Below, in pieces: positions 1,012 to 45,871 of a stretch of 64,000 nucleotides of DNA. A program made the translations under genes and the position numbers. The stretch comes from Gammaproteobacteria bacterium (GTDB lineage: Bacteria > Pseudomonadota > Gammaproteobacteria > Chromatiales > Chromatiaceae): NCBI GenBank assembly GCA_020445415.1, contig JAGRGP010000045.1, positions 1 to 64,000 of the forward strand, read 5' to 3'. The notes below the pieces were generated by a model. That model was not told where the DNA came from. It was given only the letters and a program-made list of their open reading frames with translations, and ran no database searches. The number at the start of each line of letters is the position of its first letter. Position 1 is the first letter of the stretch.

Positions 1012-1025
1012 TTGATCTGGATCAA
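1012..1025. promoter_or_regulatory. FNR/Dnr-type site upstream of hemerythrin
   Basis: TTGATCTGGATCAA is a perfect FNR/Dnr palindrome, TTGAT-N4-ATCAA. It lies about 150 bases before the hemerythrin start at 1177 and about 350 from nirS, so it most likely serves the hemerythrin gene. Confidence 0.65.
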
Positions 1026-3800: not shown

Positions 3801-3814
3801 TTGATTCAGATCAA
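3801..3814. promoter_or_regulatory. FNR/Dnr-type site, perfect
   Basis: TTGATTCAGATCAA is a perfect TTGAT-N4-ATCAA palindrome in the divergent region. It could drive the octaheme cytochrome gene on the minus strand, the hemerythrin operon on the plus strand, or both. Confidence 0.65.
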
Positions 3815-39387: not shown

Positions 39388-41223
39388 TCAGTATCCTAAA
39401 TCGGCATCGATGAACGGGTGCTCAGGGGGGGTGCCGAGTATGCCGCGCAAGATGTCGTTCATGGTCGCCGTGTCGTTATCAAATCCACCGTGGCTGGTGG
39501 CGTGGCTGCGGCCTTTGATACCGGCTCCAGGCCCCTGGCTGTACACGAATTCAAGCCGCTCTCCGGCGAGTGCTTTCAAGCCCTTGTTGTAGATTTCCAT
39601 GCCGAGAATGGCCTCGGGCACCTGCTCCTCAAAGGCGTTGGATACCAGATACAACAGCGACTTCCGGTAAATCTTCGCTACATTGTCATCTTTTTCCAGC
39701 CGACCGTTCAAATTGTAGATCGTCATCTTGTCGATAGCGAACCCCCGGTCAGTTTGCAGCAGCGGTAGATAGTGGCTCTTGAAGAGGTCTATGGAAGCCG
39801 CGGGAGCCATCAGGCTGCAACTTCTCACCCTTAAGTCAGGTGCAAGCGATTTCAATGCCGCCGTTAAATAAGCGAGGAGAATGGCTCCGGTACTGTGGCC
39901 AACCAGATGAATATTGAGTAGGCGTCCGCGCCGCTTGAATGCCTTGACGAAAGACTCGATAACCGAGATCCCCGCTCTGCCGTCACTGAAAGGACACCGA
40001 GCTCCGCTCTTCATTTCCCGCCATAACGCGCGGCCGGGTATTCGAGTACTCTGTTCAAGAATCTTGTCTGTCCAGTCTGTGAGTCCCCCGGCTCGCTGCT
40101 CGGCCTCTTCTTCTCTGCCGAGGACCACATCCTTAAGCTCTTCGAGTAGCCCGGTATCGTACATAATATGATAGGGATAGATGCGATTGAGCTTGAAGGT
40201 ATCCCGCATGGCGCTGATGCGGGTGGCGGAATCCCGGGGAGAATTGAGGCCGCCATGAGCGTAGAGTAACAAGTGGTCATATTTGTCGCTCTTGGCGATC
40301 AACCTGGCAGTTTGGCGGGTATCGTAGGCGGTACTCCAGTAGCGGCCCCGCTGATGGAACTCACCGTCATCGATATGCACGAAATGGCCGGCAATTTCCG
40401 CGCGGGTGGGGGAGCGCCCAGACTGCTTTCTGCCGTCGTGTATTACGGAATATTGATTCGGGGCGTTATGCCAGATCTGCGGTGTTGGCAACGCCAATTG
40501 AAACACCCAGGCATCGCGAATATTTTGTTGCCAGTCTTCATAGGTCCATAGAGCCACTCCATCATCGCCCCACTGTTCTCCCCAAGAGTTTTGCACCAGA
40601 AAACCTTTGTCGTTGTATCCCACAATGGCAAAGGCGTGTCCCCCGATGGCTGTCGGTTGCATCAGGATCTTGCCGTTCTTGACACGGTGTTTGTCCCAGC
40701 CTTCGTGGACCATGGCCGACACGTAGATAGCGCCAACCTCGTTGAGTGCGGTATGAAAGTCAGAGATGCGGTTTGGTAAACGGAAGTAGGCTCCCAAGGT
40801 GTTCTCCCGCGCCCTCTTGGCACGCAGGATGGTCAATTCTCCGGGATTCGGAAGATACCGCCAGTGCTCATCACGGCATACGCCCATTGCGTACCAGCCC
40901 TTGATTGCGCCCCGGCAACTGGATCCGGCATACCTCTCTCCAGGCCACTCGTCATGACGCTTTGCCATTTCATAGAGCATGCGTGAACTGACGGTGTACC
41001 CACGACCACGCCGCTGATTGAGCATGTTGATGACCGCCGCTAGGCCAAATCCCGTGCAAGCCCCTTCGCTGCCCTGATCGAGAATCGTAAGATCCTTGGG
41101 GCGATCGAGGCTTGGTTGTAATTGGATGAGCGCTGGTTGGTAGATGAAATCCCGAAAGTCTGGAACATCTGGTGTGGCATTCAGTGGATAATCCCCCAAA
41201 CATGTAATCTCCGAGTCGCTCAT
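39388..41223 (-). CDS. Papain-like cysteine protease fused to a GxSxG serine hydrolase
   Basis: A 611-residue protein of two parts. Residues 1 to about 245 are a C1-family (papain) peptidase: catalytic Cys56 in DQGSEGACTGFG, His196 in IGGHAFAIVGYN and Asn212 in VQNSWGEQWGDDG. Residues about 300-611 look like an alpha/beta hydrolase: HLLLYAHGGLNS near the oxyanion region and nucleophile Ser444 in LVGHSTGAILLAYL. A late SHATSHGG could supply the histidine. There is no signal peptide or prodomain of normal length. The open frame extends upstream to 41484 through a repeat element; ATG at 41223 with GGGGGAAA ahead is the natural start. Function is unknown. Confidence 0.8.
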   Translation of the reverse strand: MSDSEITCLGDYPLNATPDVPDFRDFIYQPALIQLQPSLDRPKDLTILDQGSEGACTGFGLAAVINMLNQRRGRGYTVSSRMLYEMAKRHDEWPGERYAGSSCRGAIKGWYAMGVCRDEHWRYLPNPGELTILRAKRARENTLGAYFRLPNRISDFHTALNEVGAIYVSAMVHEGWDKHRVKNGKILMQPTAIGGHAFAIVGYNDKGFLVQNSWGEQWGDDGVALWTYEDWQQNIRDAWVFQLALPTPQIWHNAPNQYSVIHDGRKQSGRSPTRAEIAGHFVHIDDGEFHQRGRYWSTAYDTRQTARLIAKSDKYDHLLLYAHGGLNSPRDSATRISAMRDTFKLNRIYPYHIMYDTGLLEELKDVVLGREEEAEQRAGGLTDWTDKILEQSTRIPGRALWREMKSGARCPFSDGRAGISVIESFVKAFKRRGRLLNIHLVGHSTGAILLAYLTAALKSLAPDLRVRSCSLMAPAASIDLFKSHYLPLLQTDRGFAIDKMTIYNLNGRLEKDDNVAKIYRKSLLYLVSNAFEEQVPEAILGMEIYNKGLKALAGERLEFVYSQGPGAGIKGRSHATSHGGFDNDTATMNDILRGILGTPPEHPFIDADLGY

Positions 41224-41774
41224 GAAGTTTCCCCCACTCCCGTGAATATTTAAAAGAATATACTTCCTGATTCGAGTATAGTCTGTTGAATTAAAAGGGT
41301 ATAACATCAGCTTTCTTCGGAAGTTTTTAGAATCTATCTCAAAATTACCGAACGACTTCGAGACCCGGCAAAACCGGCCGAAAACGCGCAGTTTACACGG
41401 AGTAAATGAGCAGTTGATGCAGGTCTCAACGCCGTATCGGTGGCGTGCGGCAATTTTGAGATAGGTTCTAGTACATACGCACAATACTCACTGGGCAGAA
41501 GGTAAATAGCCGTATCACGATTAAGTTATTTCAGTGCAATCAACGCTGATTTCCGCTGACGAAGCTGCTGCCGACTACTAAACGAGGTGCAGGCTTTGAA
41601 AGGATATCAGTGGCACCGAAACACTCAGGATGGGGTAAGATGTCGCGGGTCGCCAGTTTACGTGGGCCGCTGTGGGGCATGAATCCAGCGAATCGGGTGC
41701 TCGGGTACTGTTACTAGCGCGCCGAAATCACTCGTCGACCGGCATCGATAGATACCAAATATATTTAATTATCA
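41224..41774. other. Intergenic region with MITE-like element
   Basis: This 551-base gap is more AT-rich than its surroundings. It contains the inverted-repeat element at 41328-41470. The remaining parts (41224-41327 and 41471-41774) show no gene, RNA or further repeat that I can support. Short open frames here are spurious. Confidence 0.5.
41328..41470. repeat. 143-bp MITE-like element with 23-bp terminal inverted repeats
   Basis: The ends are inverted repeats of 23 bases that match at 21 positions: the left end begins TAGAATCTATCTCAAAATT and the right end finishes AATTTTGAGATAGGTTCTA. The 97-base interior encodes no protein. This is the structure of a non-autonomous transposable element or a solo pair of IS ends. 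A clear target-site duplication was not found. Only one copy is in the window. Confidence 0.65.
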
Positions 41775-42113
41775 ATGAGATATATCGTATCAATTTTGGT
41801 GGTGTATTGGGGGTTGGCAGCGGTGTACGCTCCGCTAGCTGTCGCGATTACCACCGAGCAGTATGACCGTATCAATGCGCTTGGCCGGCTAAATGGTGTC
41901 GCCCTGCACTGCGGTTACCTGGAAGAGATGAGGCGCATGAAGCAAGCACTTATCGATAATCTTCCGAAGCGCCGGGAGTTGGGATTGGCCTTTGATCGGT
42001 TAACTAACGAATCCTACCTCGATTTTATTAAGCGTGCCGAGGACTGTCCCCGAGAAAGTACGTTTGCTAGTGAGGTCAAAAAAGCAATCCAATTACTTAA
42101 AGATAGCTTTTAA
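41775..42113 (+). CDS. Small exported protein of unknown function
   Basis: A 112-residue protein with a convincing signal peptide (VSILVVYWGLAAVYAPLAVA) and a helical mature part holding two cysteines (HCGYLEEM and AEDCPRES) that could form a disulfide. The spacing of charged residues is typical of a folded small periplasmic protein. I do not recognise a family. It has no close partner: the ZnuA-SCO gene begins 70 bases later in the same direction. Confidence 0.6.
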   Translation: MRYIVSILVVYWGLAAVYAPLAVAITTEQYDRINALGRLNGVALHCGYLEEMRRMKQALIDNLPKRRELGLAFDRLTNESYLDFIKRAEDCPRESTFASEVKKAIQLLKDSF

Positions 42114-42182: not shown

Positions 42183-43643
42183 ATGAAAAGAGAGGGTAGC
42201 AAGACACCCGTGAAACTGATGATGAAGGCTTATTGGAATCACCTGTTCGGTTGGGTGTTGATCCTGGTGCTGTTGATGCAAAGTGGGTCAGCGCTATCTG
42301 CGGATGGATTGCGAGTGATGGTGAGCATCAAGCCCATCCATTCCTTGGTATCGGCTCTCATGCAGGGGGGAGACCCACCCGAACTGGTTGTCGCGGAAGG
42401 AGAGCTGCCTTTTGGGTATCAGCTATCGGAGGCACAGCGAAGCAACCTTTCAAAAGCGGATCTGCTGATCTGGACCGGGCCCGAATTGGAACCCTTCCTC
42501 GTCGGTCCCGCGGCGGAGTTGGAGGATTCTGACAAAAGTTTGGAACTGCTTGATCATCCGGCCCTGAAGATACTTCCAAGCCGCTGGAACAACGACCGCC
42601 GTGATCCGTTTTTCTGGATGGATACCCGTAATGCGTTGATCTTGATTGATGAACTGGCGCGGGTGTTGATTGACCTCGATCCGGTGAGGACACACCTTTA
42701 TCTACGGAATCGGGCGGAATTGCAGAGTCAGATTGCTGAATTGGATCGCCGTTTCGAATACGGCTATCGCGGGCTCACAGGAAGTGCCCTCATCTATCAC
42801 GATAGCCTGCAGTATTTCGAACAGGCTTATGCCTTGCGTTTTCAGGAAGTCCTTTCCCCCCCTGATGTCCGGCCGATGAGCGCGGAGACGCTTCTGTCCG
42901 CCCGCAGCCACATCACCGGAGGGGAAGTCCGTTGCATTCTTGTTGAACGAGGGATACCCGCTCCCCAACTTGCGCTGTTAACGGCGGGGTTGGAGACCGC
43001 TGTCGGAGAACTCGATAGTTTGGGTAGCGGCTTGAAGGCTGGGGCGGCGCTTTATCCCCAACTCATGGAACATACCGCTCAAGTCATCAAAGATTGTGTC
43101 GGACAGGGTATTGAGAAGCAGCCGATACTCCCCCCGGAGGAGGAGAGGCCGGTGGTCTCATCCTACGGGATCGGTGGCAGCTTTTTGCTTTCCGACCATT
43201 TGGGCGGAGTAGTCAGTGAGGCGAAATTTCTGGGCCGATATAATCTGCTTTATTTCGGGTACACTTTTTGCCCTGACGTTTGTCCGACTTCGCTTCAGGT
43301 GATGTCAGCGGCGCTAGAATTGCTTGGCAGCGAGTCGGAGAAGATACAACCTTGGTTTATTACTGTCGATCCTGAGAGAGATAGTGTATCTAAAATAAAT
43401 AGATATGTTCGCTATTTCAATAAAAATTTAATTGGATTAACCGGTAGTCCCGAGATGATATCGCGTATCGCGGCCCGCTATCGGGTCAGGTATGAGAAGG
43501 TGCAAGGAGAGGATCCGGCGATGTATCTGATGGACCATACCGCCAGCCTGTTCCTAATCGGTCCGGATGGGCGCTTCATTACCAAGTTCGCCCATGGTAT
43601 CACCCCCCGGGCACTTGCCGAGCGGCTCAAAAGCTATCTATAA
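42183..43643 (+). CDS. ZnuA-like solute-binding protein fused to a SCO copper chaperone
   Basis: A 486-residue exported or membrane-anchored fusion. After a hydrophobic segment (about 20-40), residues 44-310 resemble metal-binding receptors of ABC transporters (ZnuA/MntC type): MVSIKPIHSLVSALMQGG, then LIWTGPELEPFL and IYHDSLQYFEQAYAL. Two of the usual metal ligands are lost: F77 and F143 stand where PHDY and DPHFW have His. H206 and D278 remain. Residues 325-486 are a SCO1/SenC thioredoxin-like domain with C363 and C367 (TFCPDVCPTS) and H452 (MDHTASLFLIG), the full copper-binding set. SCO proteins load copper into cytochrome oxidase CuA. ATG at 42183 is preferred over TTG at 42171. No ABC permease or oxidase genes are near. 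Confidence 0.85.
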   Translation: MKREGSKTPVKLMMKAYWNHLFGWVLILVLLMQSGSALSADGLRVMVSIKPIHSLVSALMQGGDPPELVVAEGELPFGYQLSEAQRSNLSKADLLIWTGPELEPFLVGPAAELEDSDKSLELLDHPALKILPSRWNNDRRDPFFWMDTRNALILIDELARVLIDLDPVRTHLYLRNRAELQSQIAELDRRFEYGYRGLTGSALIYHDSLQYFEQAYALRFQEVLSPPDVRPMSAETLLSARSHITGGEVRCILVERGIPAPQLALLTAGLETAVGELDSLGSGLKAGAALYPQLMEHTAQVIKDCVGQGIEKQPILPPEEERPVVSSYGIGGSFLLSDHLGGVVSEAKFLGRYNLLYFGYTFCPDVCPTSLQVMSAALELLGSESEKIQPWFITVDPERDSVSKINRYVRYFNKNLIGLTGSPEMISRIAARYRVRYEKVQGEDPAMYLMDHTASLFLIGPDGRFITKFAHGITPRALAERLKSYL

Positions 43644-43688: not shown

Positions 43689-45005
43689 TTAGAGTGCGGA
43701 TACCAACAAGGTGGTTTTTTCAAGTCGTTCCGCGAGCGTGCGGAGAAGTTCCTGATTGAACCGTGCCTGTAAATGATCCGGGGCGTCATGCAGGGCGCTC
43801 GCCAGGATCTTGATCACCAGAACCTTTGAATGGCTGACGACACTGGCGCTTCGGGGTCGTTCGGTGCCGTGAATGTAGGCCATTTCACCAAAGCATTGCC
43901 CGTCGGTCAGTTCTCCCACCACCGATCCACCCTTGTTTATCCGGGCTTGTCCGGAGGCCAGAATAAAGAACGAGCCGCCGATCTTACCTTCTTGCAATAA
44001 GGTCGTTCCTTCGTCAAACCGGTGCCATTTGCTGATACCTAGCACCTCCCATAGCTCGACATCAGTGAAATTCCTAAAGAAGTGGAGCCGCTTCAGGATA
44101 CTGAATTTCATCGTATCGGATACGCTCTGCCCCGGAACCTCTAGACGTTCGTGGACCAGGCCCAGCTCCTTGGTTAACGCGGACCAACTGGGAAAGCGGT
44201 CTTCGGGACGTTTTTCCAGACAACGATGCACAATCTTTCGAAGTGCAACGGGAATATTCGATCGGAGTCGTTCCAGAGGTGGTACGGGATGCTGATTGAT
44301 CATTTGGCAGAGTTCGAATTGATTGCTCCCCGTGAAGGGCAACCGGCCGGTAAGCAGTTGGTAGATCACGACCCCCAGTGAATAGATATCGGTTTGGTGA
44401 TTCAGCTTGCGGCCGGAAATCTGCTCCGGCGACATATAGCTCGGGGTCCCCACGGCGTCCATGACTTGGGACAATTCAGAGTCGGTCATCAATGCCGCGC
44501 CGAAGTCGCTGATCTTGATGTCGGTGCCTGCACCCAGCAGCAGGTTGGCGGGCTTTACGTCCCGATGCACCAGCCCCTGGCGGAAGGCGTAACCAAATGC
44601 ATCGCTGCACTTGAAGAAAATCTCCACTACATCGTCGATGGGCAACAAATGGCTGGGATCGCAGAATTGCTTCAAGGTTTGCCCGGAAACGTACTCCATG
44701 ACGATATAGTGCATATCCCCCTCGCTTCCAGCATCGAAAACCTTGACGATATGGGGATGGCGAAGCTTGCCCGCCAGACTGGCCTCGGTGATGAACATGC
44801 GCCGGAAGCGTGCGCCCGTTTCCGGATTGTTGAACAGGTTATGGTGGGCAACTTTGACTGCGACTTCCTGGCCTGTAAAGGGGTCTTCAGCCAGATAGAC
44901 CGAGCTGGTCGCACCACGTCCTAGGAGCTTCCGGATGTGGCACTTGCCGATAGTTGTTCTGGTGAGTATGTCGATTTCTGTCTCTCCCGTTTGTAGGCCT
45001 CGCAT
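43689..45005 (-). CDS. Ser/Thr protein kinase with cyclic-nucleotide-binding domain
   Basis: A 438-residue cytoplasmic kinase. The glycine loop is LLGRGATSSV (27-36), with catalytic Lys51 in VAVKV, the HRDVKPANLL loop, DFG in KISDFGAAL and SPEQISG before the C-lobe. These make an active Hanks-type kinase likely. Residues about 305-435 form a cNMP-binding-type domain (FFRNFTDVELWEVLG, then LQEGKIGGSFFILASGQARI and GQCFGEMAYIHGTERP with the phosphate-binding-cassette-like pattern). There is no membrane segment. Its start overlaps the upstream unknown gene by 85 bases, so the two must be translated together. Kinase activity controlled by a nucleotide is inference. Confidence 0.87.
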   Translation of the reverse strand: MRGLQTGETEIDILTRTTIGKCHIRKLLGRGATSSVYLAEDPFTGQEVAVKVAHHNLFNNPETGARFRRMFITEASLAGKLRHPHIVKVFDAGSEGDMHYIVMEYVSGQTLKQFCDPSHLLPIDDVVEIFFKCSDAFGYAFRQGLVHRDVKPANLLLGAGTDIKISDFGAALMTDSELSQVMDAVGTPSYMSPEQISGRKLNHQTDIYSLGVVIYQLLTGRLPFTGSNQFELCQMINQHPVPPLERLRSNIPVALRKIVHRCLEKRPEDRFPSWSALTKELGLVHERLEVPGQSVSDTMKFSILKRLHFFRNFTDVELWEVLGISKWHRFDEGTTLLQEGKIGGSFFILASGQARINKGGSVVGELTDGQCFGEMAYIHGTERPRSASVVSHSKVLVIKILASALHDAPDHLQARFNQELLRTLAERLEKTTLLVSAL

Positions 45006-45871
45006 TTAGCCAGAAACAGTTTCGTGCTCCGTGGCATGGGAACCCTAACCTCCGACAAATAGGTGATCAGCTCGGTGCCGGTGTTGATCAGTTTCAGCCC
45101 TTCCGCGACTCTCGGTTGTTGTTTGTAACCGTAGCCACTGGATTCGGGCAAGAATTCCTCCACCACCTCACGATTGGCGACAAATTGGGGCCAGACTTTA
45201 AAAAAAACGATGTCGCTTTTCATCGTTTCTAGTTGCAGCTTGGCCGATTCGACGAGCCGAGCGAATGGCGCCAGTACGGGCTGAAACAACCGGTCATCCT
45301 CAAACACCCGGACAATATTCTGTTCAATGTTGTCGATATCCCGCATGGTCAGCGCAATCTTCCGGTAGCGGGATTCGAAGATCTGGGTAATCGGTTGGGT
45401 AAACGCCTTGAAAGGTTCACCCCACAGCTCGTCGATTCCCTCCTCGCCACTATAGTGTTTGACGTTCCGGCCTAACTCAAGAGCCTCTTTGAAGCAGTCG
45501 GCGCACTGCTTCATGAGCTCATTATCTCTATTGATCTTAATGCCCTTGGATTCCAGTTCCACCACGGCAGTAAAGATGTCGGTTGCCCGATTGAACAGAG
45601 CCCCAGCCAACATGGCGGCGTTGACCCGTTTGCGCATCGGGTCCTGTTCCGTTTGGTAGGCCTGCCTGGCGTCTTCCAGTCGCTCTCCGGGGGTATTGAT
45701 TCCTCCTTCGGTATGATGGAAGGTACGTTTGGAGAGATGGTCGATAAGCAGCTTACGGGTAGCCAGAGTATCGTCTGGAATCGGGTAGAAGCGGATCCAA
45801 TAACCGTCGAAGTAGATGCATTCTTTGCCGTTCAGCACCCGGCGTGTACCGTTTTTGGGTTCTTCTGTCAT
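44921..45871 (-). CDS. Unknown helical protein overlapping the kinase gene
   Basis: I do not recognise this 316-residue soluble protein. After a short N-terminal beta part (NGKECIYFDGYWIRFYPIPDD) it is largely helical and charged, without membrane segments or known motifs. It may be the substrate or the signalling partner of the kinase encoded downstream, since the last 85 bases of this gene overlap the kinase start in another frame. Such a long overlap in bacteria usually means tight translational coupling, though a later kinase start with weak signals cannot be excluded. Confidence 0.68.
   Translation of the reverse strand: MTEEPKNGTRRVLNGKECIYFDGYWIRFYPIPDDTLATRKLLIDHLSKRTFHHTEGGINTPGERLEDARQAYQTEQDPMRKRVNAAMLAGALFNRATDIFTAVVELESKGIKINRDNELMKQCADCFKEALELGRNVKHYSGEEGIDELWGEPFKAFTQPITQIFESRYRKIALTMRDIDNIEQNIVRVFEDDRLFQPVLAPFARLVESAKLQLETMKSDIVFFKVWPQFVANREVVEEFLPESSGYGYKQQPRVAEGLKLINTGTELITYLSEVRVPMPRSTKLFLAKCEAYKRERQKSTYSPEQLSASATSGSS

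What the first reader, a model, noticed from the sequence alone, without database searches (positions are those of the whole stretch)
42183..43643. Fusion of a degenerate ZnuA-like receptor with a complete SCO copper chaperone
One polypeptide joins an ABC-transporter metal receptor fold to a SCO/SenC domain. The SCO part keeps both Cys and the His for copper. The receptor part has lost two of its usual His ligands (Phe at 77 and 143) while H206 and D278 remain. No permease genes are near. The receptor may now bind a protein or a different metal and present the SCO domain to its client, possibly a CuA site in cytochrome oxidase or nitrous-oxide reductase.
Basis: partly seen in the sequence, partly recalled or inferred. 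Interest (0 to 1): 0.66.

Follow-up and report, generated by a model that had tools for sequence, protein, structure and literature searches.

The report
Copper chaperone fused to disused zinc receptor
A periplasmic protein joins a copper-delivery (SCO) domain to a zinc-receptor fold that has lost its zinc site, and its gene travels with the genes of nitrous oxide reductase, so it probably helps load copper into the enzyme that destroys the greenhouse gas N2O.

Summary
In detail: window 42183-43643(+) is one open frame with a ZnuA fold (aa 45-305) and an intact SCO domain (aa 331-465). Phe replaces two of three zinc-binding His. It is no assembly error: of 64 distinct full-length fusions, all keep the SCO Cys/Cys/His and none keeps His-His-His-Asp in the receptor, where Tyr/Phe dominate; yet receptor dN/dS is 0.04-0.20. 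The genome's real zinc importer lies elsewhere.

A ~112-aa secreted helical protein (41775-42113) is encoded directly upstream in 77 of 85 copies found. And the pair tracks Sec-dependent (clade II) nitrous oxide reductase: 66 of 76 order genomes with a match have NosZ, 31 within 1 kb; 29 of the 66 lack CoxB. All ten class-wide carriers have NosZ (base rate 17 of 284). Elsewhere the small protein is fused to SCO, or the small-SCO pair ends a nos operon.

Best reading: an assembly factor for NosZ, probably its CuA site, with the receptor retired from zinc and used for docking. In the window genome the nos cluster is on another contig. The mechanism is inferred; there is no experiment.

The parts
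42183..43643 (+). Fusion gene, 486 aa: signal peptide + ZnuA-like receptor + linker + SCO domain. The true start may be 42171 (TTG), 42183 (ATG), 42210 (GTG) or 42219 (ATG).
   Evidence: homologues
42183..42302 (+). N-terminal hydrophobic stretch read as a Sec signal peptide (about aa 1-40)
   Evidence: sequence; inference, no signal-peptide program was run
42315..43097 (+). ZnuA-like receptor domain, aa 45-305
   Evidence: Pfam ZnuA 1.6e-32; predicted fold aligns to ZnuA 7rcj_B, Z 31.4, rmsd 1.9, 261 residues
42411..42413 (+). F77, at the first zinc-ligand His position
42609..42611 (+). F143, at the second zinc-ligand His position
42798..42800 (+). H206, third ligand position, kept here; H in 19 of 64 family members
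43014..43016 (+). D278, fourth position; D in 50, N in 14 of 64
43113..43175 (+). Flexible linker, aa 311-331 (model residues 271-291, pLDDT under 50)
43173..43577 (+). SCO1/SenC domain, aa 331-465
   Evidence: Pfam 2e-46; PDB 4wbj_A E 2.1e-36
43269..43283 (+). CPDVC motif, C363 and C367; both Cys in 64 of 64
43536..43538 (+). H452, the distal copper His; 64 of 64
41775..42113 (+). Small secreted all-helical partner protein, 112 aa, with two invariant Cys (C46, C91); directly upstream of the fusion
   Evidence: 33-row alignment A2; directly upstream of a fusion match in 77 of 85 copies; model pLDDT 92.5; no Pfam match for the window member and no consistent one for the family

Best explanation
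The gene pair makes a periplasmic assembly factor for Sec-dependent (clade II) nitrous oxide reductase. Shown by computation: one chain with a ZnuA fold and an intact SCO domain; a conserved small partner upstream; co-occurrence and, in relatives, adjacency with NosZ; purifying selection on the receptor although its metal-ligand positions drift among Tyr, Phe and His. Inferred: (1) the SCO Cys/Cys/His site takes copper, perhaps from the PCuAC chaperone encoded at the end of the nos cluster, and passes it to the CuA site of NosZ, or reduces the CuA cysteines so that they can take copper (CuA client: likely; copper transfer versus reduction: open). (2) The receptor no longer imports metal. Its cleft, lined by ring residues where the His were, serves as a docking module that holds NosZ, PCuAC or the small protein beside the SCO domain, and it stands where other SCO proteins have a membrane anchor, making the chaperone soluble. 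(3) The small helical protein works with SCO, since the two are fused in one chain in some genomes. My estimates: client is NosZ 0.85; SCO acts on the CuA site 0.7; receptor is a docking module without metal 0.6.
For: Linkage: in 210 genomes of the order, 76 have a match and 97 have Sec-type NosZ, 66 both, Fisher p 5e-20. Of the 66, 36 have both on one contig: 31 within 1 kb (30 same strand with NosZ downstream, 1 divergent), 2 at 9-10 kb, 3 over 1.8 Mb apart. 29 have no CoxB. Other draws: all 10 carriers in the class draw have NosZ, as do three carriers of the small protein from a phylum draw; the NosZ base rate in a class draw is 17 of 284. Exceptions: 10 of 76 lack NosZ; eight are at most 84% complete; G164's fusion contig is short (3,949 bp if it is L026); G008 keeps NosY next to the pair with an integrase-core transposase just upstream, as if the rest of the operon was lost. 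Fusion logic: small protein + SCO in one ORF in G222 and G526; nos operon ending NosL-NosY-small-SCO in G919; nos genes then small-fusion in G458 and G362. Module SCOs form one starred clade apart from other SCOs. Receptor dN/dS 0.036-0.197 in 16 pairs. Upstream FNR-type boxes with at least 9 of 10 matching bases: 18 of 82 loci against 6.35% of 1654 random stretches. The window genome has a complete nos cluster with a PCuAC gene. Precedent: P. denitrificans mutants in pcuC, senC2 and Pden_4445 reduce less N2O at low copper (review PMC7558416, passage).
Against: In the window genome the pair is on another contig than nosZ and has no good FNR-type box (best 8 of 10). 31 genomes with NosZ have no match to the fusion (one of these, G002, has a fragment cut by a contig end), so it is not required for NosZ in general. 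Genomes are related, so the p value overstates independence; NosZ and CoxB are themselves correlated. Ordinary SCO and PCuAC genes also lie by nos in G002. No data on copper binding, expression or phenotype.
Confidence: 0.66

Rival explanations
1. The fusion serves cytochrome oxidases (aa3 CuA or cbb3 CuB), and nos linkage only reflects a shared anaerobic lifestyle.
For: SCO proteins are best known for oxidases; fusion and CoxB also correlate (odds ratio 4.3); G008 and G164 have CoxB but no NosZ.
Against: 29 fusion genomes have NosZ and no CoxB; no fusion lies near CoxB; the window genome has four other SCO genes, one about 6 kb from its CoxB on C132. cbb3 oxidase was not tested.
Confidence: 0.15
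2. The receptor still handles metal: copper instead of zinc, through H206, D278 and other residues, and acts as a relay or store for the SCO domain.
For: A nested clade of five Ca. Thiodiazotropha-related members carries His-His-His-Asn; D278 or N278 in 64 of 64; H53 in 63 of 64.
Against: No aligned member has His-His-His-Asp; H206 is Tyr or Phe in 42 of 64; H or not-H at 206 changes at least 11 times on the tree. H53 is also present in the canonical ZnuA of this genome and is not one of the usual ligands (ligand role recalled).
Confidence: 0.2
3. The module is a thiol-disulfide system: SCO reduces the CuA cysteines of NosZ and the receptor and small protein set specificity, with no copper carried.
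For: In G047 the separate receptor gene follows a DsbA-like and a DsbD_TM gene; the small protein has two invariant Cys.
Against: The SCO copper His is kept in 64 of 64; G047 is one case.
Confidence: 0.25
4. It is a working zinc or manganese receptor with an SCO domain attached.
For: ZnuA fold.
Against: Ligands lost family-wide; no ABC-3 permease nearby; a canonical ZnuA (His-His-His-Asp) with permease lies on C170.
Confidence: 0.03

Closest known systems
SCO1/SenC copper chaperones (PF02630), such as SenC2 of Paracoccus denitrificans and Blr1131 of Bradyrhizobium
   Same: Complete SCO domain with Cys-x3-Cys and distal His; a SenC protein is already implicated in N2O reduction at low copper
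   Different: Carries a ZnuA-like receptor and, apparently, a cleavable signal instead of a membrane anchor; its SCO falls in one clade with the SCO genes next to the small protein
ZnuA / cluster A-I metal-binding receptors (PF01297)
   Same: Same fold, Z 31.4 to 7rcj_B; an invariant Cys pair (C211 and C265 of the mature protein; that it is the ZnuA disulfide is recalled)
   Different: Metal ligands lost, no permease, separated from canonical ZnuA by a branch of support 100
SCO1-MauG fusions beside mtoX (methanethiol oxidase)
   Same: A precedent for an SCO domain fused to a client-specific partner in a copper-enzyme operon (PMC5739008, passages)
   Different: Other partner domain, other client
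PCuAC + SCO route for CuA assembly
   Same: The window genome has a PCuAC gene at the end of its nos cluster
   Different: Here the SCO part is fused and has a small helical partner not matched by Pfam

Membership tests
SCO1/SenC | Profile match over the curated cut-off | tested here: met
   PF02630 157.7 bits, cut-off 22.8
SCO1/SenC | Cys-x3-Cys plus distal His for copper | tested here: met
   C363, C367, H452; 64 of 64
SCO1/SenC | Binds copper and supports a CuA site | not testable with these tools
   needs protein and strains
ZnuA-type metal receptor | Fold | tested here: met
   Z 31.4, rmsd 1.9, 261 aligned to 7rcj_B; Pfam 113.4 bits, cut-off 29
ZnuA-type metal receptor | Three His ligands (plus Asp/Glu) in the cleft | tested here: not met
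   F77, F143; His-His-His only in 5 of 64, with Asn at 278; His-His-His-Asp in none
ZnuA-type metal receptor | Encoded with ABC permease and ATPase | tested here: not met
   PF00950 only on C170 and C133 in this genome
nos (N2O reductase) accessory gene | Lies in the nos cluster | tested here: inconclusive
   Not in the window genome (C1 versus C3); within 1 kb of NosZ in 31 order genomes; in or by nos clusters in G362, G458, G017
nos (N2O reductase) accessory gene | Restricted to genomes with NosZ | tested here: met
   66 of 76 in the order, misses mostly incomplete genomes; 10 of 10 in the class draw
nos (N2O reductase) accessory gene | Needed for NosZ maturation | not testable with these tools
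   needs a deletion strain

The most novel reading that the evidence does not exclude
A dedicated three-part assembly machine for the CuA site of clade II N2O reductase (small helical protein, SCO chaperone, retired zinc receptor), whose core, small protein plus SCO, belongs to the nos operon, and in which an ABC-importer receptor has been turned into a protein-docking clamp with an aromatic pocket.
Probability: 0.45. Interest if true: 0.75.

Novelty: new variant of a known kind. Interest (0 to 1): 0.6.

Why it matters
N2O reductase is the main known biological sink for N2O, and copper supply decides whether it works. The CuZ site has a known chaperone (NosL); how CuA is filled is far less clear, and clade II enzymes have been studied less. 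A conserved gene pair tied to clade II nosZ in sulfur-oxidising, often animal-symbiotic gammaproteobacteria gives a concrete candidate that can be knocked out. It also shows a transport receptor recruited away from metal binding.

Tried and rejected
Assembly or sequencing error: rejected (64 distinct full-length fusions). Misaligned ligands: rejected for the window protein and for the family. Decay of a useless domain: rejected, receptor dN/dS 0.036-0.197. A zinc-uptake role: rejected. Small protein as a known family: Pfam gave no match for the window member and only scattered weak ones for 33 members (DUF3218 in 2, best E 0.00028); Foldseek against PDB gave no match at E 0.001 or better, which does not show a new fold. 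Small protein on plasmids: no match. Whether Pden_4445 is a relative of the small protein could not be settled: the original paper is not held and no sequence was available. An FNR-type box in front of the window's own pair: none. Literature: the listings of searches (open-access library only) showed no paper on a ZnuA-SCO fusion; passages were read in PMC6530538, PMC7558416, PMC11409646 and PMC5739008, none read whole.

Rows dropped or merged before counts: identical proteins were merged (70 to 64); nine genomes with NosZ-model matches read as TAT-type cross-hits were left out of the 106 to give 97 (none of the nine carries the fusion); seven genomes with only NosZ fragments below the cut-off were kept. 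The 76 'fusion' genomes include G222 (small-SCO, no receptor), G021 (split in two frames) and several cut by contig ends. For the SCO tree only every third fused row was used. Both trees are quick searches with no bootstrap; the receptor tree has warnings of long branches.

Full report
What is there. Window 42183-43643 on the + strand is one open frame. Its product matches Pfam ZnuA over the whole model (aa 45-305, E 1.6e-32) and SCO1-SenC over the whole model (aa 331-465, E 2e-46). NCBIfam zinc-receptor equivalogs match only far below their cut-offs. The SCO part is closest among solved structures to Blr1131 (4wbj, E 2.1e-36) and the receptor to ZnuA. AlphaFold2 gives a confident two-domain model (mean pLDDT 88.6) with a disordered linker at model residues 271-291; the receptor aligns with ZnuA at Z 31.4, rmsd 1.9 over 261 residues.

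The fusion is real and conserved. A scan of named genomes gave 62 loci that encode relatives, many named Sedimenticola or Ca. Thiodiazotropha, with others such as a Thiohalomonas, a Thioglobus and a Methylophaga MAG. From the loci held by then, 70 full-length fusion ORFs were extracted, 64 distinct. The two SCO cysteines and the distal histidine are present in 64 of 64.

The metal site. In the alignment to solved ZnuA, F77 and F143 stand where ZnuA has His, and H206 aligns with the third His. Family-wide (64 rows): position 77 is Y 31, F 14, H 9, W 3, others 7; position 143 is F 34, Y 20, H 8, L 2; position 206 is Y 22, F 20, H 19, others 3; position 278 is D 50, N 14. Five rows have His-His-His, all with Asn at 278; none has His-His-His-Asp. 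On a larger set of 71 fused rows the picture is the same. Three canonical ZnuAs, of this genome and two relatives, have His-His-His-Asp. On a quick tree the module receptors separate from these three with support 100, and the His-His-His-Asn rows are one nested clade. The receptor is under purifying selection: in 16 independent pairs dN/dS is 0.036-0.197, against 0.024-0.208 for SCO in the 15 pairs where it could be computed. So the domain is kept, the metal site is not, and ring-bearing residues are favoured in its place.

Not an importer. The genome has a canonical ZnuA on contig C170 with an ABC-3 permease beside it; the only other ABC-3 match is a weak one on C133.

A partner gene. Clustering of neighbours (62 loci plus the window) showed a roughly 112-aa protein just upstream, same strand, in 45 of the 63, including the window, 41775-42113. 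It has a signal-like N-terminus, an LNGxALxC motif and two invariant cysteines in 33 aligned rows, folds as an all-helical protein (pLDDT 92.5), and has no convincing Pfam or PDB relative. In 210 genomes of the order it was found in 83 (85 copies); 77 copies lie directly upstream of a fusion match, and 75 of 76 fusion genomes have it. Of the eight genomes that have it without a fusion match, three of one genus were looked at (G024, G139, G142) and there it lies next to an SCO gene with no receptor; in G015 the contig ends in it; the other four were not looked at.

Link with nitrous oxide reductase. The same clustering showed NosZ about 250 bp downstream in 20 loci, then NosD, ferredoxin-type and other nos genes. 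Across the order (210 genomes): 76 with a fusion match, 97 with Sec-type NosZ, 66 both; odds ratio 21.9, p 5e-20; for CoxB 43 of 76, odds ratio 4.3, p 1.3e-6; 29 genomes have fusion and NosZ without CoxB. These p values treat related genomes as independent and so are too small. Of the 66, 36 have both genes on one contig, 31 of them within 1 kb; in the rest they are on different contigs or far apart. Against CoxB, 3 of 43 share a contig, none nearer than 185 kb. In a class-wide draw 10 of 369 genomes had a match, from 7 families, and all ten have NosZ, against 17 of 284 in a NosZ class draw. Three further carriers of the small protein from a phylum draw (G654, G672, G919) also have it.

Misses. 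Ten of 76 fusion genomes lack NosZ. Eight are 70-84% complete. G164 is rated complete but its fusion lies on a short contig (it matches L026 of 3,949 bp by coordinates). G008 (99% complete) has NosY directly upstream of the pair and an integrase-core transposase right beyond, with a second copy 4 kb on; I read it as a broken nos operon. In the other direction, 31 NosZ genomes have no fusion match.

Fusion logic. G222 and G526 have the small protein and SCO in one ORF; G526 and G047 have the receptor as a separate gene; G919 has a nos operon ending NosL-NosY-small-SCO without a receptor; G458 and G362 have nos genes followed by small-fusion. In G047 the separate receptor follows DsbA-like and DsbD_TM genes. 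SCO domains from all these contexts form one clade with support 98 in a quick tree, apart from other SCOs of the same genomes; two ordinary SCO genes that happen to lie near the small gene, in loci L055 and L098, fall outside. FNR-type boxes with 9 or 10 of 10 bases occur upstream of the small gene in 18 of 82 loci, against 6.35% of 1654 random stretches of the same loci; the loci are related, and the window itself has none.

In this genome. A complete nos cluster lies on contig C3: NosZ, cytochromes, a NosB-like protein, NosD, NapG- and NapH-like, NosF, NosL, NosY and then a PCuAC gene (names other than NosZ, NosL and PCuAC rest on resemblance to the proteins and on recall). The fusion is on C1. 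Four other SCO genes are present, one near CoxB on C132.

How it most likely works, and what is inferred, is set out under Best explanation. The precedent is that in P. [quoted passage not shown] SCO domains fused to client-specific partners are known (SCO1-MauG beside mtoX, PMC5739008, passages), but the listings of my searches showed no ZnuA-SCO fusion and no nos-linked small partner.

Verdict. Observation confirmed; interpretation partly supported and made more specific; a new variant of a known kind (client-dedicated SCO chaperone), with a plausible case for a previously unnamed nos accessory module.

Noticed in passing
window 1012-1025 and 3801-3814: Perfect FNR/DNR-type boxes TTGATnnnnATCAA; the first is about 150 bp upstream of a hemerythrin-domain gene (1177-1728). 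The window has 55 near matches against 23.5 expected.
   Followed up: partly
window 43689-45871 (-): Protein kinase with a C-terminal cyclic-nucleotide-binding domain, overlapping a 316-aa gene upstream; convergent with the fusion.
   Followed up: no
window 39388-41484 (-): 698-aa protein with a papain-like C1 peptidase domain and a long C-terminal part without a Pfam match at 1e-5.
   Followed up: no
L144 10345-12054 and 15223-16029 (genome G008): Remnant of a nos operon: NosY, small protein and fusion remain, with an integrase-core transposase where the upstream nos genes would be and a near-identical copy about 4 kb on.
   Followed up: partly
L142 6964-9442 (genome G047): Separate receptor gene directly after DsbA-like and DsbD_TM genes, hinting at a thiol-redox link.
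   Followed up: partly
L042, L043, L045, L046, L047/L122: A nested clade with His-His-His-Asn at the old ligand positions, mostly Ca. Thiodiazotropha: a possible regained metal site.
   Followed up: partly
L161 (genome G002, same genus as the window): nos cluster with PCuAC and an ordinary SCO beside it, plus a fusion fragment cut by the end of contig C297.
   Followed up: partly
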